A stretch of 30,288 nt of DNA from Candidatus Babeliales bacterium (GTDB taxonomy: Bacteria; Babelota; Babeliae; Babelales; JABDEC01): positions 1 through 30,288 of the forward strand of contig JARLHJ010000044.1 in assembly GCA_031292305.1 (NCBI GenBank), written 5' to 3'. The position numbers and the translations under genes were made by a program. The first letter of the stretch is position 1. The number at the start of each line of letters is the position of its first letter. The notes beneath the pieces were generated by a model. The model searched no databases. It saw only the letters and a program-made list of their open reading frames with translations, and was not told the DNA's origin. Below, in pieces: positions 633 to 18,980 of this stretch.

Positions 633-1361
633 ATGTTAAAAATGAAAAAAATAATTTTGTTAATTTCTATAATTTCCAGTTCTGCGCTTTTTTCAAAACC
701 TGCTGATACAAGAATAAAAATGTATGCATTATATACACCCTCACATAAAATCTTAGTGGATAAATACTTTTTACCGAGCATTAAAGATAATTTCAATCTT
801 ATAATAGATACATTTAAACAACAATGCCCTACAGGTCAATTTAATAGTGAGGGTTGGAACACCACAATGCTTGATAAAGTAGATGTGATAATTAATGCTA
901 TCAAATCTAATAAGAACAAAATTTTTATCTTTTCTGATGTAGATATTATTTTTATTAGACCTGTTGAAAAAGAATTAAAAAAATTAATGAAAACATATGA
1001 ATTTGTAATTCAAAAATCTTCAGAAAAATTACCTAATTGTTGCACTGGCTTCTTTGCTATGATTGGTAATGAAAAGAATTTAAAGTTATGGATAGACATC
1101 AAAAAATTCATGTTAAAGAATCCAAAACTTTCTGAAGAAGATGTTCTTAACTTCTTTATTAAACAAGGTAGATTGAATAACATCAAATGGTCACAGTTGC
1201 CAAAAGAATATAATACAGGCGGAATGTTTACAGGATCTAGATGGGTTCCGGGCATTGAATTACAATTACCAGAAAACATACTTTTACATCATGCTAATTG
1301 GACTGTTGGAATAGACAATAAAATAGCGCAACTTGAGTATGTACTTAAAAAAACAAAATAA
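633..1361 (+). CDS. Signal-peptide-bearing DxD glycosyltransferase (nucleotide-diphospho-sugar transferase-like)
   Basis: 242 residues. Residues about 4-21 form a basic-hydrophobic leader ending near LFSK, consistent with Sec export or a membrane anchor. The core resembles the nucleotide-diphospho-sugar transferase family (PF03407 type): IFSDVDIIFIRP holds the metal-binding DxD at residues 102-104, followed by a CCTGFFAM segment and SEEDVLNFF. Such enzymes transfer a sugar from a nucleotide donor. The ATG at 633 has an AGGGG ribosome site about 5 bases upstream; the ATG at 642 would be too far from it, so 633 is chosen. The gene lies 1 bp after the FkbM-like gene and 3 bp before the exostosin-like gene, so the three are probably one transcript. 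Donor and acceptor cannot be told from sequence. Confidence 0.78.
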   Translation: MLKMKKIILLISIISSSALFSKPADTRIKMYALYTPSHKILVDKYFLPSIKDNFNLIIDTFKQQCPTGQFNSEGWNTTMLDKVDVIINAIKSNKNKIFIFSDVDIIFIRPVEKELKKLMKTYEFVIQKSSEKLPNCCTGFFAMIGNEKNLKLWIDIKKFMLKNPKLSEEDVLNFFIKQGRLNNIKWSQLPKEYNTGGMFTGSRWVPGIELQLPENILLHHANWTVGIDNKIAQLEYVLKKTK

Positions 1362-1364
1362 AGT

Positions 1365-2264
1365 ATGAACAAAAAACTAATATTTTTTTTATTAAGCTGT
1401 CTTGTTAGCAACACAATAAATAGTTTAATTTTTCATGAATATTATTTAGATTTATTTAAAGAAGAACCTGTCCCTACAGAGTATCTTGCATATAAACTAT
1501 TAAAAAAAAATCCAATTAAAAAAAATATTAATTATTTGGCAGTTCCATGGACACAGTTAATACATAAGAACCAATTGGATAAAGCGCCTAACATTAAATT
1601 AAATGGTGGCTTTACTATTTGCCAACATATCGATTACGAAAAAATTATGCCTATTTTAGAAAAAATAGGCATAAATGTTTTATTTGCTCCCCATGTTAAT
1701 AAACAATATAAAAATATAACAGTTTTGCCATTTGCTCATGTAGCCGTAAATGGCATTTCACCTAGATTAAATAAAGATATTTTTTATTCTTTTATTGGAT
1801 TAGAAAGAACGCATTGGACACGCAAAGAGATCTTTAATATGAAACACTCCAAAAATACGGTTATTATTGAACGCAAAGATTGGCATTTTTGGATAAATAA
1901 ACAGAATTCAAAAGAACTAGAACTTAGACAAAATAAAGAAAAAAAAGAATATCAAGATGTTTTAGCCCGTTCAATATTTTCTTTGTGCCCCCGTGGTACT
2001 GGGGCTAGCACTATAAGATTTTGGGAATCACTAAAATCAGGTTCTGTTCCTGTTTTAATTGCTGATGATATGATGCTTCCTGCTGGATTTGATTGGAATA
2101 GCTGCATTATTAAATTAGAAGAAAAAAATGTAAAAAACATACCTACAATTTTATCTAATATTAGCGCAGAAAAATATACCCAAATGTCTATCAACTGCAT
2201 AAAGGCTTATTCTTTATTTTCTGGTAAAAACTTTGTCAGAACTATTAGAGATTATTTTAAATAA
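1365..2264 (+). CDS. Exostosin-like (GT47) glycosyltransferase with signal peptide, copy 1
   Basis: 299 residues. The leader (about residues 1-20, MNKKLIFFLLSCLVSNTINS) looks like a Sec signal. Residues about 206-231 carry the C-terminal exostosin signature: SLCPRGTG, then IRFWESLKSGSVPVL and a LPAGFDW segment. This is the nucleotide-sugar-binding half of GT47 enzymes, the family that in animals polymerises heparan sulfate and in plants makes pectin and xyloglucan chains. A paralogue lies at 6133-7062 on the other strand. The two share long conserved stretches (LLKKNPI, KLNGGFTI, KDIFYSFIG) across their whole length. The gene ends one base short of the convergent gene. In the island it is the best clue that a polysaccharide backbone is made. 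Exact sugar specificity is not readable. Confidence 0.8.
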   Translation: MNKKLIFFLLSCLVSNTINSLIFHEYYLDLFKEEPVPTEYLAYKLLKKNPIKKNINYLAVPWTQLIHKNQLDKAPNIKLNGGFTICQHIDYEKIMPILEKIGINVLFAPHVNKQYKNITVLPFAHVAVNGISPRLNKDIFYSFIGLERTHWTRKEIFNMKHSKNTVIIERKDWHFWINKQNSKELELRQNKEKKEYQDVLARSIFSLCPRGTGASTIRFWESLKSGSVPVLIADDMMLPAGFDWNSCIIKLEEKNVKNIPTILSNISAEKYTQMSINCIKAYSLFSGKNFVRTIRDYFK

Positions 2265-2265
2265 A

Positions 2266-3342
2266 TTATTTATTCAAACTAGATATTGACCCTTTAATAG
2301 CTATTTTTGTCATAATAAGTTTATTTTCTTGCCAGATACAATCTAACGGAAAAATAACAAATTTATGATTACCCATAATTTCGGATATTCTAGGAAAATA
2401 TGATTCTGACCTAATTAAACCATCAAAAAGTGACATTTTATATAAATCTGTATAAATACGTTCTTTAAAAGATAGTTTTCTATTATCTTGATAATAAAAT
2501 ACAATATTTTTTCTATTTGCAGCTTTCTTTAATCTATCAATTAACGCATATGGATTATTGTCATCGGTAAAAATTTCTATAAATAATTTATGCATTTTCA
2601 ATTCATCCGCTACTTTGCAAATTTGATCGACATAATATTGTTCTGGGGGAAATTTTGTCATATAACGCTCAATTTTATCTAATGATAATATTGAGTCATT
2701 ATCTACAGAGCTTTTGGTTTTGGGACCTATTGCATTTACAATTTCACCATTTTCTAATCTTTGATAATGAGCAAGATCAAACGGATAATTAAAATAATTA
2801 TTTACATAAACTACATCAGACCTATTAAAATTAAAATACTGTAAAGAAGATTGCTCGCCATCATATACTTCTCCGCCACCATTACCTTTTCTTATATGTA
2901 GTGCTATAGTAATTTTATCTTTTGGCAAAGGTTTAACATTAGGTATATTTTTGAATCTTATTAATTTTTTAATAAGATTCCACCAATCTTTATTCATTGG
3001 TTGAATTTTTACACCCAAATGGGGTCTTAATAACACATCTAAATTTTTATATTTAACATTATTTATATCTTTAATATCTGCATAAATAATATCTGTAAAA
3101 TCCTTGATTTCTTGGTTATTAATTCTTTTTTCTTTAATATCCAAAATAAATAAATCACTATATCTAAACGGTGAATAATAAAATGGAATATCATATTTTA
3201 TTGATAAAAGTTTTGCTAAAATAAACCGAGCAATACTATCACCTACTTGAGATACTGGCCTATTAGTTATAATCTGCTCAGAGATTATTGAATTTAAACA
3301 AAATAAAATATTAAAAAATAAAATTAATTTAATGATTTTCAT
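2266..3342 (-). CDS. Fucosyltransferase-like glycosyltransferase with signal peptide
   Basis: 358 residues with an N-terminal hydrophobic leader (about residues 1-21, ending in SIISEQ). Residues 147-154 read ALHIRKGN, resembling the donor-binding HxRxG motif of GDP-fucose transferases (GT11/GT23/GT65-type fold). Further on, EIFTDDNNP and FDGLIRSESYFP match the late conserved strands of that fold, where a side chain contacts the nucleotide. The family assignment rests on these short motifs only, so it is tentative. The start is an ATG with a GAGGGA ribosome site 3-4 bases upstream. It is the only minus-strand gene between the first two plus-strand gene groups, so it has its own promoter in the 3343-3466 spacer, although no strong promoter match was found there. 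Confidence 0.55.
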   Translation of the reverse strand: MKIIKLILFFNILFCLNSIISEQIITNRPVSQVGDSIARFILAKLLSIKYDIPFYYSPFRYSDLFILDIKEKRINNQEIKDFTDIIYADIKDINNVKYKNLDVLLRPHLGVKIQPMNKDWWNLIKKLIRFKNIPNVKPLPKDKITIALHIRKGNGGGEVYDGEQSSLQYFNFNRSDVVYVNNYFNYPFDLAHYQRLENGEIVNAIGPKTKSSVDNDSILSLDKIERYMTKFPPEQYYVDQICKVADELKMHKLFIEIFTDDNNPYALIDRLKKAANRKNIVFYYQDNRKLSFKERIYTDLYKMSLFDGLIRSESYFPRISEIMGNHKFVIFPLDCIWQENKLIMTKIAIKGSISSLNK

Positions 3343-3430
3343 AGATTCCCTCGAGTTATAAAAATATTAAATAAGAATTTAGACAATTATTTTAAAATAA
3401 GCTAACTTTTAGAAAATTATTTAACCCAAG

Positions 3431-3457
3431 CTTCGCCCTAGGCTACGTCGGGCAAAG
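3431..3457 (+). repeat. Imperfect hairpin-forming repeat-like element fused to a ribosome-binding site
   Basis: CTTCGCCC (3431-3438) and GGGCAAAG (3450-3457) form an 8-bp stem with one mismatch around an 11-base loop. The element is markedly GC-rich beside its AT-rich surroundings. Its right arm runs straight into AAAGGGGAG (3454-3462), the ribosome site of the next gene. It resembles the short GC-rich dispersed palindromes seen in several small bacterial genomes, but only one copy of this exact type is in the window, so repeat status is inferred. Confidence 0.45.
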
Positions 3458-3466
3458 GGGAGAAAA

Positions 3467-4474
3467 TTGAAGAATTTAATTTGTTTATTAAATTTATTAT
3501 TATTTAGTTATATTACTTTAAATCATTGCGAAGTGTATATAGTGACCAGATTATACTGTGATTCAAAAGAAGAAGAATCACTTTATCCAAATAATAATAG
3601 TTACAACAAATCTTCTAGTGATGAATTTCAAAAAATTTATTGGCAATGCGCTTGTGTAATGTTTGCATCCAGCAAAAAATTTAATCCTAATGCTAAACAT
3701 ATTCTTTTTACAAATAAAGACACTATACCCTTACAATTTGATTTATTGCTTAAAGCAATCGGTGTAGAAATAATAAATATTCCTATGACATATCAAACTC
3801 CTAAAGATTTTTATGCCCATTTTAGAAATTCATTCTACATGCTGGATGTGATAAATTATTTATCATTAAATTGCAACCAAAATGACAAAATAATAATCTT
3901 AGATAGCGATTGCATTTGGACCAAATCCGCAAATCTAATATTGAAAGATATAGAAAAATATAAACTATTAAATTATGACCTAGGATATTCTCCACATTAT
4001 TCTATTGGCACATTAACACGTATAGACTATCAGACAATATATCAAGATATCTTAAACCAAAAAATAGATACATTTCCAAAGCATTTTGGCGCAGAAATAA
4101 TTGCCTGTGATTATGAAACATTAAATAATATATCTCGCGAGATTAATCCTGTATGGAAAAATATGCTATATCGGTTTAAAACGAATAAAAAAAAATTTGT
4201 TACAGAAGAACATGTTTTAAGCTTTATTTATTTTAAGCTTAATTTAACTCAAGGATATGCAAAAAAATATATAAAACGTATTTGGACATCCCATCTTTTT
4301 AATAATGTTTCAGGAAATGAAGCTAATTTTACAATATGGCATTTACCAACAGAAAAAAATACTGGTTTTGTTAATTTATTTAATAGTTTAATTAATCCGG
4401 CATCAGAATTTATGAAATTAAAAACTAAAGAATTTGCACAATTTTGTGCAAAAAGTTGTTCCATAATCATATAA
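3467..4474 (+). CDS. DxD glycosyltransferase-like protein with signal peptide
   Basis: 335 residues. The leader (about residues 1-20, rich in Leu) points to export or a membrane anchor. IIILDSDCIW places a DxD-type metal site at residues 146-148, and the order of strands around it (KHILFTNKD before it, a FGAEIIACD strand after it) suits a GT-A fold. I cannot assign a CAZy family with confidence. The start is a TTG at 3467, chosen because AAAGGGGAG lies 4 bases upstream and because it gives a complete leader; no ATG fits as well. It is followed after 11 bp by a sulfotransferase gene, so both are probably co-transcribed. An alternative is a non-catalytic GT-A-like protein, since the catalytic base cannot be seen. 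Confidence 0.65.
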   Translation: MKNLICLLNLLLFSYITLNHCEVYIVTRLYCDSKEEESLYPNNNSYNKSSSDEFQKIYWQCACVMFASSKKFNPNAKHILFTNKDTIPLQFDLLLKAIGVEIINIPMTYQTPKDFYAHFRNSFYMLDVINYLSLNCNQNDKIIILDSDCIWTKSANLILKDIEKYKLLNYDLGYSPHYSIGTLTRIDYQTIYQDILNQKIDTFPKHFGAEIIACDYETLNNISREINPVWKNMLYRFKTNKKKFVTEEHVLSFIYFKLNLTQGYAKKYIKRIWTSHLFNNVSGNEANFTIWHLPTEKNTGFVNLFNSLINPASEFMKLKTKEFAQFCAKSCSIII

Positions 4475-4485
4475 AGGAGATCGCT

Positions 4486-5238
4486 ATGTCACTTAAGTTT
4501 AATGCTTTTATTTTTAGCTTATTATTTTCAACGATAGGCAATGCCCAAAATTCAGAGAAAATATTTTTTTCTTCTATTCCAAAATGCGGGACTCACTTAC
4601 TTAAAGAAACAATCACCTTTTTAACTAAAAAAAAATATAAACATTGTTCTCATTTTAAATCTGGAAGAGAAGATCATTTACCTACTTTTGACCCTAGCAA
4701 AGAATTTATTTTTTGGCATATACCGTATTCAACCTATGCTTCAAATAGTTTAACAAAACAGAATTTCAGATCTATATTTTTATACCGTGACCCTAGAGAC
4801 CAATTAATTTCTTATATCTTTTGGGTAATTAAAGATCCTAGCCAAATTCCTTTCTCGCAAACTAAAAAATTATATCCATTTGATTGGAATGATTTCTTAA
4901 CAATATTAATACAGAATGTTAATGAATTTTATAAGTCATATATTCCTTGGATTAATAGTCCAAATGTACTTTCTGTAAAATTTGAAGATTTAATATCTAA
5001 GGATAAAAACATACAAATTAATACAATAAAAAAAATCTGTTCTCATATCAAAGTAAAACCGACAGAAGATTTAATAAGCAACTGTTATAAAGAAACTTTT
5101 GGAAAAGCGGGAACTTTCAGAGAAGGCAAAAAAGGCGCTTGGAGAAAATATTTCTCGAAAGAACATGTACACTTATTTAAAAAACATGCCGGTCAATTGC
5201 TAATTGATCTTAAATATGAAAAAGATTTTAATTGGTAA
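4486..5238 (+). CDS. SULT-type PAPS-dependent sulfotransferase with signal peptide, copy 1
   Basis: 250 residues. A sulfotransferase moves the sulfuryl group of PAPS to a hydroxyl or amine. The diagnostic motifs are in order: PKCGTHLL at 32-39 (5'-phosphosulfate loop), WHIP with H78 where the SULT catalytic histidine sits, RDPRDQLIS at 101-109 (3'-phosphate site), a VKFEDLI strand, and FREGKKGAWRKYF at 211-223, the C-terminal PAPS-clamping motif of eukaryotic cytosolic SULTs. Residues 1-20 are a clear signal peptide with a GNAQ cleavage site, absent from cytosolic SULTs. The ATG at 4486 follows AAAGGAGA by 5 bases; an upstream in-frame extension to 4444 would overlap the previous gene and hide the leader, so it is rejected. 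A paralogue follows 11 bp downstream. The acceptor is unknown, presumably a glycan given the neighbours. Confidence 0.88.
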   Translation: MSLKFNAFIFSLLFSTIGNAQNSEKIFFSSIPKCGTHLLKETITFLTKKKYKHCSHFKSGREDHLPTFDPSKEFIFWHIPYSTYASNSLTKQNFRSIFLYRDPRDQLISYIFWVIKDPSQIPFSQTKKLYPFDWNDFLTILIQNVNEFYKSYIPWINSPNVLSVKFEDLISKDKNIQINTIKKICSHIKVKPTEDLISNCYKETFGKAGTFREGKKGAWRKYFSKEHVHLFKKHAGQLLIDLKYEKDFNW

Positions 5239-5249
5239 GGAAAAATAAT

Positions 5250-6143
5250 ATGATTAATTTTCTTAAATATCTAACAATAATAAGTTGTTTTGTAACACCA
5301 TTATTAGCAAAACAAGACACAAGGCCTTTAATTATTTCCATACCTAAGTGTGGAACTCATTTATTGCAAAAATGCATTCAACTTATTATTAAAGATAAAG
5401 AATTATGCTCATATGCGCATGCCAGATATAGCCCTGATAAAATAAGTATTATAAATAATCGTAAAAGTTTTTTTATAATACGTGACCCTAGAGATCAATT
5501 AATTTCATTTATTTACCATGTTATAATAAGGATTAATGTTTACAAAGACAATCCTGAAATGAGAGAGAAGCTGAAAAGTTTTTGGCAGTATGAAAATTTA
5601 AGCTTTTCGGAAAAAATCTCACACTTAATTGATAGAGGTGCGCCTTATTATGACATTTACAGATCTTCTGCTGAAGAATCTCAAAAGAGCTATTTGGAAT
5701 GGCAGCAGAGTTTGTTGAAAATTAAAAACCACCAAAATAATCCTCAAATTAAATATCAGTTACAAAGCTTCATGGATTATAAAAACCCAACTGGTAATAC
5801 TACTCATGGAATAAATCAATTTTATAGTGAGTATTTAGGTTGGCAAAAAGTTCCTGGAATTTGCAATATTAAATTTGAAAATTTAGTAGGACCAAAAGGT
5901 GGTGGAACATTAGAAAAACAACTTGCAGAGATTAAAAAAATTGCTCATCATTTAGGCAAACACTTAAGTGATAAAGAAATTAAAGAAGTTGCTAAAAATT
6001 TATTTGGTGAATCAAATACATTTAGAAAAGGAAAAATAGGCTCTTGGAAAAAGCATTTTAATGATGATCATAAAAATCATTTTAAAAGGCTTGCAGGGTC
6101 ACTTTTAATTAATTTAGGATATGAAAAAGATTTTAATTGGTAA
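5250..6143 (+). CDS. SULT-type PAPS-dependent sulfotransferase with signal peptide, copy 2
   Basis: 297 residues, paralogous to the preceding gene. It has PKCGTHLL at 32-39, IIRDPRDQLIS at 77-87, IKFENLV, and FRKGKIGSWKKHF at 258-270; both proteins end in YEKDFNW. Residues 1-21 form a signal peptide ending near LLAKQ. It differs from copy 1 in two ways. The segment before the RDPRD motif is shorter, with AHARYS (H57) the only plausible match for the catalytic histidine. A Lys/Gln/Tyr-rich insertion of about 50-60 residues follows the motif (about 95-185), in the zone that forms the acceptor pocket in SULTs. The ATG at 5250 has AAGGA 8 bases upstream. The last 11 bases overlap the end of the convergent exostosin-like gene. 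Probably acts on a different acceptor from copy 1. Confidence 0.86.
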   Translation: MINFLKYLTIISCFVTPLLAKQDTRPLIISIPKCGTHLLQKCIQLIIKDKELCSYAHARYSPDKISIINNRKSFFIIRDPRDQLISFIYHVIIRINVYKDNPEMREKLKSFWQYENLSFSEKISHLIDRGAPYYDIYRSSAEESQKSYLEWQQSLLKIKNHQNNPQIKYQLQSFMDYKNPTGNTTHGINQFYSEYLGWQKVPGICNIKFENLVGPKGGGTLEKQLAEIKKIAHHLGKHLSDKEIKEVAKNLFGESNTFRKGKIGSWKKHFNDDHKNHFKRLAGSLLINLGYEKDFNW

Positions 6144-7062
6144 TTATATTATTTTCATAATAATTCTTAATAACTTTTATAAGATTATTATTTGAAAATA
6201 ATTTGTGAGCTCTTAAACATTTTTTTCTCATTTTTGCTTCTTGATCTTGCGATATCGATGTTAAGATTTCAGAAATATTATTTATATCTATTTCTGAAAT
6301 CTTAACAATGCAAGATTCCCAGTCAAAACCAGAAGGCAATGCCAAATTACATTCGATCAAAACTGGAATAGCACCTGCTTGTAAAGATTCCCAAAACCTT
6401 AATGTCCCAGGTCCTCTTCCATTTGGGCATAAAGAAAATCTAGAACGTGAAAGAATATTTTGGTATTCAATTTTCTCTTGTTCTTTTCTAATTTTAGCTT
6501 CTTGCGATTTTTCCCATATATCAATATAAAAATGTAGCGTTTTTCTTTTAATTATAACGGCTTTTTTTGAATGTTTTGCCCGAAAAATTTTTTTTCTTAG
6601 TGGATTATCTTCACAACCTATAAATGAATAAAATATGTCTTTATTCTTATTGGGCAAAGTACCGTTTAAATTAAAATGGGGCATGGGTAGAACTTTAATG
6701 CTTTTATATTCTTTTAAAGTTGCGTGTGGAGTAAATATAACATTAATTCCAATCTCACTTAAAATAGGAAATAATTTTTCAAAATGAACACTTCTGGTAA
6801 TGGTAAAGCCACCATTTAATTTAATTTTTGGAACTAAATCTAATCTGTTTGTATCAATAAGATAAGCCCAAGGAATGGCTAGATAATTTACATTTGTTAA
6901 AATAGGATTTTTTTTTAACAAATGATAGGCAGGATATTCTAGAGGAATCATATCCTGTTGCCACAAATCAGTATAATATTCATAGGTTCTCATTAGTTGA
7001 CTATGAATGGGAGTAAAAAGAAATAAATTTAAAAAATATATAAAAAATAAATTTTGTTTCAT
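6133..7062 (-). CDS. Exostosin-like (GT47) glycosyltransferase with signal peptide, copy 2
   Basis: 309 residues from the ATG at 7062; a TTG at 7098 gives 12 more residues but neither start has a strong ribosome site, and 7062 yields a clean leader (about residues 1-22, ending IHSQ) that lines up with the leader of copy 1 at 1365-2264. The GT47 signature lies at about 209-235: SLCPNGRG, LRFWESLQAGAIPVL, then LPSGFDWESC. It shares KLNGGFTI and KDIFYSFIG with copy 1, so the pair arose by duplication and has since been separated onto opposite strands. Animal heparan sulfate polymerisation also uses two exostosin-type proteins, but that parallel is only suggestive. The 3' end overlaps the convergent sulfotransferase gene by 11 bp. 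Shares a 97-bp divergent spacer with the PAPS synthetase gene. Confidence 0.8.
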   Translation of the reverse strand: MKQNLFFIYFLNLFLFTPIHSQLMRTYEYYTDLWQQDMIPLEYPAYHLLKKNPILTNVNYLAIPWAYLIDTNRLDLVPKIKLNGGFTITRSVHFEKLFPILSEIGINVIFTPHATLKEYKSIKVLPMPHFNLNGTLPNKNKDIFYSFIGCEDNPLRKKIFRAKHSKKAVIIKRKTLHFYIDIWEKSQEAKIRKEQEKIEYQNILSRSRFSLCPNGRGPGTLRFWESLQAGAIPVLIECNLALPSGFDWESCIVKISEIDINNISEILTSISQDQEAKMRKKCLRAHKLFSNNNLIKVIKNYYENNIITN

Positions 7063-7159
7063 ACGCAAACCATAATAAAAAACTCTTATTGATTTCAACT
7101 GTTAAAAATAGTAAGAATGTTAATAGTTGGTATTTAACAAAAAAAAGGAGAATGCTGTT

Positions 7160-8848
7160 ATGAAGTTATTACGTTATATTTTTATTTTTACCTATTGCAT
7201 TAATGCATGGGCCATATCTATTCCTACGGAAGAATCATTAACTTTAACCCAACGACAATTATGTGATCTTGAGTTAATATTAAACGAAGGATTTGCACCG
7301 CTCAAAGGCTTTATGAATCAAAGCGATTATACTAAAGTAATAGAAGAAATGAGATTAACTGATGGAACAGTTTGGCCAATGCCAATAACATTAGACATCT
7401 CAGAAGATTTCGCAAAGAAGATAAACCCTGGATGCAAAATAGTCTTAAAAGGTCAAGAAGGTCACCCACTTGCTAATTTATATGTAGAAGATGTTTATAA
7501 GCCAAATAAAACTGCAGAAGCACAAGGTGTTTTTTCAACCACAGATACAACACATCCTGGAGTAAATTATTTATTTAATACTACAAAAGATTATTACGTT
7601 GGTGGTAAAATCGAAAAAATAGCAATGCCTAAACATTATGATTTTGTGGAATTGCGTAAAACACCGCAAGAAATTAAAGAATACTTTAAGCGTAATAATA
7701 TTAATAAGATTGTGGCTTTCCAAACAAGAAACCCAATGCACAGAGCACATATAGAATTAACAATGCGCGCATCAAGAGACTTAGACGCACATTTATTAAT
7801 TCATCCAGCTGTTGGGTTAACAAAACCTGGGGACGTTGATCATTTTACACGTGTTAAATGTTATAAAAAAATATTAAATTATTTTTCTTCAGAAGCAGTA
7901 ACACTAAGCTTGCTACCTATTTCAATGCGTATGGCTGGACCAAAAGAAGCATTGTGGCATGCAATAATTAGAAAAAATTACGGCGTGACACACTTTATTG
8001 TAGGCAGAGACCATGCAGGTCCTGGCAAAGATAAAAATGGCAAAGATTTCTATGGTCCATATGACGCACAAGAATTAGTAAAAAAATATGAAGATGAAAT
8101 TGGTATTAAAATGGTACCATTTAAAGAAATGGTTTATGTACCAGACCAAGACAAATACTTCTCTGTTGATGAAATTTCTAAAGATACAAAAGTATTAAAT
8201 ATTTCTGGCACAGAGTTACGTAAAATCTTACAAGAAGGCAAAGAAATGCCAACTTGGTTTACTTACCCAGAAATTGCTGAAGAATTAAGAAAAACTTCTC
8301 CTGCACGTTCTAAACAAGGTTTTACAATTTTCTTTACTGGTTTATCTGGAGCAGGTAAATCAACAATTGCTAATGCATTAGCAATAAAATTAATGGAAAT
8401 TCAAAACCGTAAAATAAGTTTATTAGATGGTGATGTAGTAAGGCTAAACTTATCAAAGGGATTAGGATTTTCTAAAGAAGACAGATCTACTAACGTACGC
8501 CGTGTAGGATATGTTTCAAATGAAATTACTAAAAATGGTGGCATCGCATTATGTGCTTTAGTGTCTCCTTATGAAAATGATAGACAATCTAATAGAAATC
8601 TAATTTTAGAAAACGGTGGCTATATTGAAGTTCATGTAGCGACTTCATTACATGAATGTGAATTACGTGATGATAAAGGCTTATATGCATTAGCTAAAGC
8701 TGGAAAAATACCTAATTTCACTGGTATAAGCGATCCGTATGAAACGCCTTCTAACCCTGAACTAATAATTGATACAGAAAAAGTTTCTGTAAGTGAGGCA
8801 ATTGATTTAATTATTAATAAATTAAAAATTGAAGGATATTTAGAATAA
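7160..8848 (+). CDS. sat/cysC: Bifunctional ATP sulfurylase / APS kinase (PAPS synthetase) with signal-peptide-like leader
   Basis: 562 residues. It should convert sulfate and ATP to APS, then phosphorylate APS to PAPS, the donor used by the two sulfotransferases nearby. The ATP sulfurylase domain (about 20-375) has QTRNPMHRAH at 188-197 and GRDHAGPG at 282-289. The APS kinase domain (about 385-562) has an intact P-loop GLSGAGKST at 394-402, LDGD at 422-425, LGFSKEDR and RDDKGLY, so the kinase should be active, unlike the degenerate one of fungal ATP sulfurylases. Domain order is sulfurylase first, opposite to animal PAPS synthetase. Homologues normally begin at the equivalent of residue 20; here an extra MKLLRYIFIFTYCINAWA leader precedes. 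The ATG at 7160 follows AAGGAG by 9 bases, so the leader is real; an in-frame start at 7127 would also include it. Function is firm; export is inference. Confidence 0.93.
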   Translation: MKLLRYIFIFTYCINAWAISIPTEESLTLTQRQLCDLELILNEGFAPLKGFMNQSDYTKVIEEMRLTDGTVWPMPITLDISEDFAKKINPGCKIVLKGQEGHPLANLYVEDVYKPNKTAEAQGVFSTTDTTHPGVNYLFNTTKDYYVGGKIEKIAMPKHYDFVELRKTPQEIKEYFKRNNINKIVAFQTRNPMHRAHIELTMRASRDLDAHLLIHPAVGLTKPGDVDHFTRVKCYKKILNYFSSEAVTLSLLPISMRMAGPKEALWHAIIRKNYGVTHFIVGRDHAGPGKDKNGKDFYGPYDAQELVKKYEDEIGIKMVPFKEMVYVPDQDKYFSVDEISKDTKVLNISGTELRKILQEGKEMPTWFTYPEIAEELRKTSPARSKQGFTIFFTGLSGAGKSTIANALAIKLMEIQNRKISLLDGDVVRLNLSKGLGFSKEDRSTNVRRVGYVSNEITKNGGIALCALVSPYENDRQSNRNLILENGGYIEVHVATSLHECELRDDKGLYALAKAGKIPNFTGISDPYETPSNPELIIDTEKVSVSEAIDLIINKLKIEGYLE

Positions 8849-8884
8849 GTTTAATTTTTAAAATTAATTTGATAATATGTTTTA

Positions 8885-9877
8885 ATGAAAAAAATACTTG
8901 TTCTATTATTTATCTTATCAGTCAATATGAATAACACCTGCATTACCCCAAAAATTATTGGGTTAATGCAGGTCAGAAATGAATCTCCTATAATAGAAGT
9001 CGCACTTCGCGCAATGGCCGTATACACAGATTCAATAGTCGTTTTAGATGACGATTCCGCTGACAATACTGTAGCTATTATAAAATCTCTTAGTAAAGAA
9101 TTAAATATTGAAAAAATAATTGAAAAAAAAGAATGTGCCTGGTTTTATAAAACAGAACTTGATAGCAAGCAAGAACTTCTTAATGCTGCTCGATCTTTAG
9201 GTGGAACACATTTCATCCATTTAGATGCCGATGAAATACTTACGTCTAATTGCGCCAAAGACAATTGGTTAAGAAAAAAAATTTTAGCACTTGACCGCGG
9301 ACAAGTATTAGTTTTAAGAATGATTCATCCTTGGAAAGGAGTAGATTATTATAGAGACGACGAACATATGACTCCTAATAAACTCGGTATTGGCGCATTT
9401 ATGCATGACGATGGAGTTTGCAGCATGAAAGACAATAAAAACACATCTTCATCAGGTTTTATTCATATTGGAAGATTTCCTGTAACTAAAAATATCGTTA
9501 GCATAAATGATGTTGAACATTGTATTATTCATTTTAAATTCGTAAATTTTGAAGATATGAGAATTAAAATTGCCTGGTACATGTGCTTAGAAAGAATAAG
9601 ATTAATTGAGAATTTATCTTTAAAGCATCCAAATCGAACAATAGAAAATATAAATAAATACTATAGCTACTATCAACCATTCTTTGAAGATGAACATATT
9701 GTATTAAGACCAATGAGAAATACATGGTTAAATTATAAATTTTTTAATCCTGATGTATTTCATAAACAACATATCTGGAGAAAAAAAGAAATAAGAAATT
9801 GGTTTAAAAAACATGGTATTAGTTATTTTAAGAAATTAAATATTTGGAATCTTGGAATTAATTGGAAAAACTTCTAA
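8885..9877 (+). CDS. GT2-family glycosyltransferase with signal-peptide-like leader
   Basis: 330 residues. Residues 1-19 are hydrophobic (MKKILVLLFILSVNM...). The core starts directly after with IIGLMQVRNES and a VVLDDDSADNT strand (D55-D57), then HFIHLDADE (D114, D116), matching the family-2 transferases that use a DDxS plus DxD arrangement. The region up to about 125 is the donor-binding half; the rest, with several WY-rich segments, is the acceptor half and is not diagnostic. The leader abuts the first beta strand, so the start could alternatively be read as a cytosolic protein with a hydrophobic N-terminus, but its pattern agrees with every other gene of the island. No good ribosome site precedes the ATG. 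It lies 36 bp after the PAPS synthetase gene and is probably co-transcribed with it. Confidence 0.75.
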   Translation: MKKILVLLFILSVNMNNTCITPKIIGLMQVRNESPIIEVALRAMAVYTDSIVVLDDDSADNTVAIIKSLSKELNIEKIIEKKECAWFYKTELDSKQELLNAARSLGGTHFIHLDADEILTSNCAKDNWLRKKILALDRGQVLVLRMIHPWKGVDYYRDDEHMTPNKLGIGAFMHDDGVCSMKDNKNTSSSGFIHIGRFPVTKNIVSINDVEHCIIHFKFVNFEDMRIKIAWYMCLERIRLIENLSLKHPNRTIENINKYYSYYQPFFEDEHIVLRPMRNTWLNYKFFNPDVFHKQHIWRKKEIRNWFKKHGISYFKKLNIWNLGINWKNF

Positions 9878-18197: not shown

Positions 18198-18980
18198 TCA
18201 AAACAAATGAGATAGAAGCTTCATAGTAGACTTCCAATCTTTATGCAAAATTCCATTAATTCCCAAAGAATTAGCAGCATCAATATTTTCTTGTAGATCA
18301 TCTATAAAATAATAATCTGATGGATTATTATCTTTAATAACTATTTTAAAAGCTTGCAAGTCTGGCTTTGCTTTTTTGTGATGACCAGAAATTATAACGT
18401 TTTCTGGTTTAAATAAATTAAATAACTCAGGAAATTTGTTTTTAATTAGCTCAATAGAAACTGCATCCCAATTGGATAGAATAAATAATTCATGGCCTAA
18501 TTCAGCACATTTTTTTACTATCTTAAAACCTTCTTGATCTAAATTAGTAATTTTTAGAATATTCTCTGGCAATAATAAATATATACCTGTGGCTATGAGA
18601 TTACGTTCCGATTTGTTTTTAAAAAAACTTGAATACTCTTCTTTATAAATATTTTCAGAAATTATTGCGATCAATTCTTGATTTGTAATTTGACCGGCAA
18701 ACCATGCATTTCTACAGTCTTGTTTTAAAACAATATCCCCAAATTGAAAGATTCTGTAATATGCTGCAATCAGTGACTTATTATTATAATAATATTTAGC
18801 TATATTTAATGGGCCTACAATCGAAATTATATGACTATAAGATCTAATGCCTCTTTGATGTAATAAAACTTCACCTAAATCAAAAATTATTTTTGCACTG
18901 TACGATATTGAAGAGGTAAATAACAAAATTAATACTAGCCCGCTCATACTGAGCGAACGAAGCGAGTCGAACGTATTCAT
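18198..18980 (-). CDS. HAD-superfamily hydrolase with signal-peptide-like leader
   Basis: 260 residues. HAD enzymes are mostly phosphatases using an aspartate nucleophile. Motif I is IIFDLGEVLL with D34, the FDLGxV form seen in YihX-like phosphatases; motif II is LSNWD (S169); motif III is KAKPD (K203 or K205); motif IV is FIDDLQENIDAA (D227, D228). The cap is the helical stretch of about 45-145. The mature domain starts right after a hydrophobic leader (about 13-29, SGLVLILLFTSSISYSA), so the enzyme is probably exported. The first dozen codons (residues 3-14) are made of a GC-rich dispersed repeat read in frame. The ATG at 18980 has GGGGG about 5 bases upstream; a TTG at 18992 lacks that spacing. 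Confidence 0.85.
   Translation of the reverse strand: MNTFDSLRSLSMSGLVLILLFTSSISYSAKIIFDLGEVLLHQRGIRSYSHIISIVGPLNIAKYYYNNKSLIAAYYRIFQFGDIVLKQDCRNAWFAGQITNQELIAIISENIYKEEYSSFFKNKSERNLIATGIYLLLPENILKITNLDQEGFKIVKKCAELGHELFILSNWDAVSIELIKNKFPELFNLFKPENVIISGHHKKAKPDLQAFKIVIKDNNPSDYYFIDDLQENIDAANSLGINGILHKDWKSTMKLLSHLF
18939..18973. repeat. GC-rich dispersed-repeat-like element inside the 5' end of the HAD gene
   Basis: CGCTCA (18941-18946) and TGAGCG (18950-18955) form a perfect 6-bp stem with a TAC loop, followed by GAACGAAGCGAGTCGAACG. It is GC-rich in an AT-rich gene. The reverse complement aligns with the element at 14634-14667. It encodes residues 3-14 (TFDSLRSLSMSG) of the HAD protein. Confidence 0.6.

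What the first reader, a model, noticed from the sequence alone, without database searches (positions are those of the whole stretch)
4486..8848. A complete activated-sulfate-plus-sulfotransferase module in which every protein carries an export signal
Seen: two SULT-type sulfotransferases (PKCGTHLL, RDPRDQLIS and FRxGKxGxW motifs) and a sulfurylase/APS kinase with all motifs intact lie within 4.4 kb, and each starts with a signal-peptide-like leader after a good ribosome site. Known: sulfotransferases of this type need PAPS, and this enzyme pair makes PAPS; both classes are normally cytosolic when built like this. No cysH, cysI or cysJ is near. Inference: the bacterium may export a full sulfation system to its periplasm, surface or host compartment and sulfate a glycan or host molecule there. 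I know of no described bacterial system of this kind.
Basis: partly seen in the sequence, partly recalled or inferred. Interest (0 to 1): 0.92.

Follow-up and report, generated by a model that had tools for sequence, protein, structure and literature searches.

The report
Exported sulfation kit in intracellular bacteria
A bacterium of a phylum that lives inside single-celled hosts carries the enzymes that make activated sulfate and attach it to other molecules, and all of them have export tags instead of staying in the cell interior as such enzymes normally do, which suggests that it sulfates something outside its own cytoplasm, perhaps in the host.

Summary
ST1 (4486-5238) and ST2 (5250-6143) are SULT-type sulfotransferases; 7160-8848 is an intact bifunctional ATP sulfurylase/APS kinase (PAPS synthetase). 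Each begins with a Sec-type leader after a good ribosome site. The genome has no other APS kinase and no PAPS reductase, so the pathway is not assimilatory. The lineage is Dependentiae/Babelota: relative G004 has exactly the published chromosome length of Babela massiliensis, whose "ATP sulfurylase" was reported as unexplained. All six PAPS synthetases of the phylum carry an unconserved hydrophobic leader where leaderless relatives have a soluble segment; 79 of 80 matches elsewhere lack one. The exception is a chlamydia-like MAG; together these seven form one clade (100/99). PAPS synthetase genomes always hold ST2-like enzymes (6/6 versus 9/95, p=4e-6).

Two corrections. Leaders are common here (53% of sampled ORFs), so three in a row is not rare; the enzyme class is what surprises. 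And the kit is larger: neighbouring glycosyltransferases, and elsewhere UDP-glucose dehydrogenase, epimerases and FkbM methyltransferases, also have leaders.

Best reading: exported enzymes use host ATP and sulfate to sulfate a glycan or other acceptor outside the bacterial cytoplasm. Destination and acceptor are untested.

The parts
4486..5238 (+). ST1, SULT-type PAPS-dependent sulfotransferase, 250 aa, leader 1-20 (MSLKFNAFIFSLLFSTIGNA|QN)
   Evidence: PF00685 39.4 bits; PSB loop PKCGTHLL, RDPRDQLIS, FREGKKGAW; AlphaFold model pLDDT 81.5 with residues 1-19 of low confidence, best PDB matches SULT-type sulfotransferases
5250..6143 (+). ST2, SULT-type sulfotransferase, 297 aa, leader 1-20 (MINFLKYLTIISCFVTPLLA|KQ); 11 nt after ST1
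   Evidence: PF00685 35.7 bits; invariant K33, H57, R78-R81, S86, G261, W266 across 21 relatives
7160..8848 (+). Bifunctional ATP sulfurylase / APS kinase (PAPS synthetase), 562 aa, leader 1-18 (MKLLRYIFIFTYCINAWA|IS)
   Evidence: PF01747, PF01583, PF14306; NF004040 equivalog 869 bits; QTRNPMHRAH, GRDHAG, P-loop GLSGAGKST intact
3467..4474 (+). Leader-bearing ORF upstream of ST1 on the same strand, 335 aa, no Pfam match, DSDCIW (DxD-like) motif; probable glycosyltransferase
   Evidence: function inferred from the motif only
6133..7062 (-). Exostosin-type GT47 glycosyltransferase with leader, between ST2 and the PAPS synthetase on the opposite strand
   Evidence: PF03016 56.5 bits, leader
8885..9877 (+). 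GT2 glycosyltransferase with hydrophobic leader/anchor (no clear cleavage site)
   Evidence: PF13704, PF00535
633..1361 (+). Nucleotide-diphospho-sugar transferase (PF03407) with leader
1365..2264 (+). Exostosin-type GT47 glycosyltransferase with leader
   Evidence: PF03016 60.6 bits
2266..3342 (-). Leader-bearing ORF, 358 aa, no Pfam family at E<=0.001; possible fucosyltransferase-like enzyme (inference)

Best explanation
This is an extracytoplasmic sulfation kit. The PAPS synthetase and the sulfotransferases are made as precursors and cross the inner membrane through Sec (inferred from leaders). Outside the bacterial cytoplasm the synthetase turns host ATP and sulfate into PAPS, and the SULT-type enzymes pass the sulfonate to an acceptor, most likely a glycan built by the co-exported glycosyltransferases, or a host molecule. 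The site must be reached by host-cytosol metabolites: either the host cytosol after release through the type II-like pathway or outer-membrane vesicles, or a periplasm that fills with host ATP, as it must where inner-membrane ATP/ADP translocases feed on it. I favour delivery beyond the periplasm, weakly. Shown: gene identity, intact motifs, leaders and their recurrence, co-occurrence, absence of another PAPS route. Inferred: secretion, activity, ATP source, destination, acceptor.
For: Six of six PAPS synthetases in the phylum have a leader; before the conserved LTxRQLCDLEL only Met1 is invariant while the mature parts are 60-65% identical, the pattern of signal peptides (five of the six scored, the G053 leader read by eye). 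Most other bacterial homologues carry a soluble N-terminal stretch in that place and no leader, 79 of 80. The exception, a chlamydia-like MAG with several ATP/ADP translocases, also has two leader-bearing STs and joins the clade at 100/99. 36 of 40 ST ORFs from the lineage have a leader or hydrophobic anchor. Co-occurrence 6/6 versus 9/95, p=3.9e-6. One APS kinase, no PAPS reductase, two TLC translocase genes in the genome. Nine genomes have ST2-like enzymes but no PAPS synthetase (seven of them at least 95% complete), which fits use of host PAPS. Exported proteins here are rich in cysteine (1.59%) with odd counts common, unlike E. coli exported proteins (0.43%, none odd), which suggests a non-oxidising destination.
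Against: No SignalP/DeepTMHMM run; my rule is simple and its threshold was lowered to admit the window's synthetase. No secretion, activity or localisation data exist. No exported pyrophosphatase (the one PPase found is leaderless) and no CysQ-type PAP phosphatase were found, so how products are cleared is unknown. The cysteine argument also fits a periplasm without Dsb. The ST pair and the synthetase are not one operon.
Confidence: 0.62

Rival explanations
1. The kit works strictly in the bacterial periplasm, sulfating a glycan of the bacterium's own envelope, with ATP entering from the host through outer-membrane channels; nothing is released into the host.
For: Leaders send proteins at least to the periplasm. 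Glycosyltransferases, UDP-glucose dehydrogenase and epimerases are co-exported. TLC translocases in the genome imply that ATP reaches the periplasm.
Against: Free and odd cysteines are as frequent as in cytosolic proteins; NAD, SAM, ATP and UDP-sugars would all be needed in a small periplasm; ST-only genomes would need host PAPS to enter it.
Confidence: 0.24
2. The leaders are not functional: the hydrophobic N-termini anchor the enzymes at the inner face of the membrane, or are mis-chosen starts, and PAPS is made and used in the bacterial cytoplasm as usual.
For: The window's synthetase has only a moderately hydrophobic core (1.79). Half of all ORFs pass the rule, which could hint at a composition effect in an A+T-rich genome.
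Against: Ribosome sites sit at the leader starts; 0 of 10 orthologues of E. coli cytosolic proteins and 2.5% of internal Met positions pass; leaderless and leader-bearing UDP-glucose dehydrogenases coexist in the phylum; leaders are absent from 79 of 80 outside homologues.
Confidence: 0.1
3. The PAPS synthetase is a relic of sulfate assimilation or serves detoxification and is unrelated to the sulfotransferases.
For: The two are not co-transcribed here. The B. massiliensis authors could assign no role to the ATP sulfurylase (PMC4378268).
Against: No PAPS reductase in the genome; perfect nesting of PAPS synthetase genomes within ST2-like genomes; in G058 the synthetase starts about 40 nt after an ST gene on the same strand.
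Confidence: 0.04

Closest known systems
Bifunctional sulfate adenylyltransferase/APS kinase (NF004040; Aquifex aeolicus 2gks; Penicillium 1i2d)
   Same: Domain order, length, ATP sulfurylase and APS kinase motifs, about 60% identity to bacterial homologues
   Different: Soluble N-terminal segment replaced by an export leader; one separate clade shared with a chlamydia-like MAG
Cytosolic SULT sulfotransferases (PF00685; SULT7A1 5x2b, SULT2A1, SULT1C2)
   Same: Fold and PAPS-binding motifs PKxGT, RDPRDxxxS, FRxGxxGxW
   Different: Only 14-20% identity; leader added; ST2 has a shortened stretch between the first two motifs and an insert
Periplasmic arylsulfate sulfotransferase AssT/ASST with DsbL/DsbI (E. 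coli CFT073)
   Same: A bacterial sulfotransferase outside the cytoplasm (PMC13426309)
   Different: AssT is PAPS-independent, of an unrelated family, and uses aryl sulfate donors; here PAPS enzymes are exported together with their donor synthetase
Eukaryotic Golgi sulfation
   Same: Sulfotransferases and glycosyltransferases share an extracytoplasmic compartment (own knowledge)
   Different: The Golgi imports PAPS made in the cytosol or nucleus through a transporter; here the PAPS synthetase itself appears to be exported
RaxST of Xanthomonas oryzae (tyrosine sulfation)
   Same: Bacterial PAPS-dependent sulfation in a host-interaction context (PMC4216712, abstract shown)
   Different: As far as I know RaxST and its PAPS enzymes are cytoplasmic and the sulfated product is exported afterwards

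Membership tests
Bifunctional SAT/APS kinase (NF004040) | Scores above the curated equivalog cut-off over both domains | tested here: met
   869 bits against 669, residues 22-562
Bifunctional SAT/APS kinase (NF004040) | ATP sulfurylase nucleotide site (QTRNPMHRAH, GRDHAG) and intact APS-kinase P-loop GLSGAGKST | tested here: met
   Invariant or intact in the alignment of six; the fungal chain 1i2d, whose kinase domain is inactive (own knowledge), has GYMNSGKDA there
Bifunctional SAT/APS kinase (NF004040) | Makes PAPS | not testable with these tools
   needs purified protein
PAPS-dependent SULT sulfotransferase (PF00685) | 5'-phosphosulfate loop, 3'-phosphate site and RKGxxGxWK-type motif | tested here: met
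PAPS-dependent SULT sulfotransferase (PF00685) | SULT fold | tested here: met
   ST1 model, 61 PDB matches at E<=0.001; the 50 listed are SULT-family or related PAPS sulfotransferases; the ST2 model is poor (pLDDT 67.5)
PAPS-dependent SULT sulfotransferase (PF00685) | Sulfotransferase activity and acceptor | not testable with these tools
   acceptor unknown
Sec-exported protein | Positively charged n-region, hydrophobic core, small residues before a cleavage site | tested here: met
   weak for the window's own synthetase, strong in four scored orthologues
Sec-exported protein | SignalP/DeepTMHMM prediction or observed cleavage | not testable with these tools
   no predictor or proteome at hand
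Assimilatory sulfate reduction | PAPS/APS reductase in the genome | tested here: not met
   PF01507 absent from the genome (92% complete), while all 14 control genomes ring
Arylsulfate sulfotransferase (AssT/ASST) | AssT-family domain | tested here: not met
   only PF00685 matches in the STs
Anti-phage defence (PADLOC) | Match to a defence model | tested here: not met
   one marginal P-loop match only

The most novel reading that the evidence does not exclude
Babelota, and by shared ancestry or transfer some chlamydia-like bacteria, run sulfonucleotide and sugar-nucleotide metabolism outside their own cytoplasm: PAPS synthetase, sulfotransferases, UDP-glucose dehydrogenase, epimerases, nucleotidyltransferase-like enzymes, FkbM methyltransferases and large glycosyltransferase arrays are all exported and use host ATP, NAD, SAM and UDP-sugars to build a sulfated glycan or remodel the host.
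Probability: 0.45. Interest if true: 0.93.

Novelty: new variant of a known kind. Interest (0 to 1): 0.8.

Why it matters
PAPS chemistry is taught as cytosolic in bacteria; the periplasmic sulfotransferases known so far avoid PAPS. An exported PAPS synthetase would show nucleotide-driven biosynthesis outside the bacterial cytoplasm, powered by the host. It also gives a testable role to the ATP sulfurylase that the Babela massiliensis authors could not explain, in a bacterium that is cultured in Acanthamoeba, so the claim can be checked directly.

Tried and rejected
Viral collection: no PAPS synthetase relatives; the nine ST relatives found there are distant and appear leaderless (one rule hit, L237, is the enzyme's own first strand). 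Idea that a conserved PHGG motif marks all cytosolic homologues: wrong, only 11 of 80 have it; the soluble segment is of another form in Rhodobacterales. Assimilatory sulfate reduction: rejected. Anti-phage defence: no support. Single operon: rejected, a convergent GT47 gene intervenes. Rossmann proteins give false positives in my rule (leaderless UDP-glucose dehydrogenases), so those were judged by the position of the GxGxxG motif instead. A first cytosolic control set was too small (5 proteins) and was enlarged to 10. The ST2 structure model was too poor to use. The chlamydial nature of the REEB169 MAG was not proven; it rests on translocases and a SET protein.
Full report
What is in the window. 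ST1 (4486-5238), ST2 (5250-6143) and the PAPS synthetase (7160-8848) are present and intact, each with an ATG start behind a ribosome site. ST1 and ST2 lie 11 nt apart and follow a leader-bearing ORF (3467-4474). A GT47 gene on the minus strand (6133-7062) separates ST2 from the synthetase. Around them, 633-9877 is a run of nine genes; all nine have a leader or hydrophobic anchor, and besides the three sulfation genes at least four are glycosyltransferases by Pfam. Housekeeping genes of the same window (CysS and the aldolase by NCBIfam; MutL, PrmC and FtsY recognised from their sequences) have none.

Which organism. G000 is 1.53 Mb in 47 contigs. Relative G004 of the same order is one contig of 1,118,422 bases, exactly the length published for Babela massiliensis (PMC4378268). 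The lineage is therefore Dependentiae/Babelota, obligate intracellular bacteria of protists. In Chromulinavorax 44% of proteins have a predicted signal (PMC6561590). My rule finds 206 of 386 ORFs in 457 kb of G000.

Are the leaders real. The rule was checked on 130 E. coli proteins: 18 of 19 exported and 3 of 111 cytosolic ones passed. In G000, 0 of 10 orthologues of cytosolic E. coli proteins pass and 2.5% of internal Met positions do. The window's synthetase scored 1.79 and first failed the 1.9 threshold; I then used 1.75. The orthologues in G004, G058, G060 and G092 score 2.34-3.02. The one in G053 was read from the alignment and not scored. In that alignment the leader positions share only Met1 while the mature proteins are 60-65% identical. 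Outside this clade, most homologues carry a soluble N-terminal segment instead, and 79 of 80 have no leader.

Evolution. Six of 101 genomes of the phylum have the full synthetase. The one outside homologue with a leader, from a MAG named Verrucomicrobiota (REEB169), begins MRYIVLFLCAFLQVEA|VS. Its genome has several ATP/ADP translocases, and two STs of the same family with leaders (the ST leaders were read from the frames, as the gene caller chose other starts). In a tree of 28 synthetases the seven leader-bearing ones form one clade at 100/99; whether the six Babelota alone are a clade is open (AU p 0.29). So the exported form probably arose once and was shared between intracellular lineages.

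Function. The genome has one APS kinase and no PAPS reductase. All six genomes with the synthetase also have ST2-like enzymes, against nine of the other 95 (Fisher p 3.9e-6; genomes are related and some incomplete, so this is indicative). Nine genomes have ST2-like enzymes and no synthetase; seven of them are at least 95% complete. These would need PAPS from elsewhere, most simply the host. STs keep Lys33, His57, the RDPR...S site and the G..G.W motif (Lys33, His57, Arg78-Arg81, Ser86, Gly261 and Trp266 of ST2 are invariant in 21 sequences). ST1 folds like cytosolic SULTs.

Where does it act. Two TLC genes mean that host ATP must reach the outer face of the inner membrane (inference from what this transporter family does). 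Exported proteins in G000 hold 1.59% cysteine, with odd counts in 84 of 182; the 13 E. coli exported proteins hold 0.43% and none is odd (Fisher 7e-4; small E. coli set). That favours a non-oxidising site, host cytosol or a Dsb-free periplasm. B. massiliensis is reported to have a type II system as its only secretion system. Destination stays inference.

A wider exported set. A cluster on contig C8 has about eight GT4-like genes (two confirmed by Pfam), two STs and a UDP-glucose dehydrogenase, nearly all with leaders. Of 27 UDP-glucose dehydrogenases inspected, 16 have 23-38 residues including a leader before the GxGxxG motif and 11 start 7-11 residues before it (classified by that distance). 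GDP-mannose dehydratase, epimerase and NTP_transferase proteins with leaders occur in G092. In B. massiliensis four leader-bearing GT4-like genes sit next to the PAPS synthetase (one confirmed by Pfam).

Literature. The B. massiliensis paper lists the ATP sulfurylase among enzymes of unclear function. Searches of the open-access library for exported PAPS enzymes returned nothing on such a system; subscription papers are not held, so prior description cannot be excluded.

Verdict. The most defensible claim is an export-tagged PAPS-synthesis and sulfotransfer kit, conserved in some Babelota and shared with a chlamydia-like lineage. Site and acceptor need experiments.

Noticed in passing
L078:2109-3512 (G000 contig C8) and L187-L216: UDP-glucose dehydrogenase with an export-type leader; in the phylum leader-bearing and leaderless forms of this enzyme coexist, which suggests exported sugar-nucleotide metabolism.
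   Followed up: partly
L077:5463-14403 (G000 contig C8); L082:4170-9244 (Babela massiliensis): Arrays of GT4-like glycosyltransferases, most with leaders; in B. massiliensis four of them are adjacent to the PAPS synthetase.
   Followed up: partly
L101:2723-4411, L181, L182: A chlamydia-like MAG (named Verrucomicrobiota REEB169) carries the same leader-bearing PAPS synthetase and STs, a possible transfer between intracellular lineages.
   Followed up: partly
G000 sample: Exported proteins of this genome are cysteine-rich with odd cysteine counts, unlike E. coli exported proteins.
   Followed up: partly
L085:741-2027 and 3832-5040 (G060): The PAPS synthetase is flanked by two leader-bearing ORFs with very weak ATP-grasp-like matches.
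   Followed up: no
window 18198-18980 -: Weakly HAD-like hydrolase with a leader-like N-terminus (no net positive charge before the core); secreted HAD enzymes are also reported in Chromulinavorax.
   Followed up: no
L074:9058-9756: FkbM-type methyltransferase (PF05050) with a hydrophobic leader, which would need SAM outside the cytoplasm.
   Followed up: no
window 28077-29138 - and 29317-29616 +: A protein with a hydrophobic leader that looks like ankyrin repeats by eye, and a small cysteine-rich secreted protein, both effector-like.
   Followed up: no
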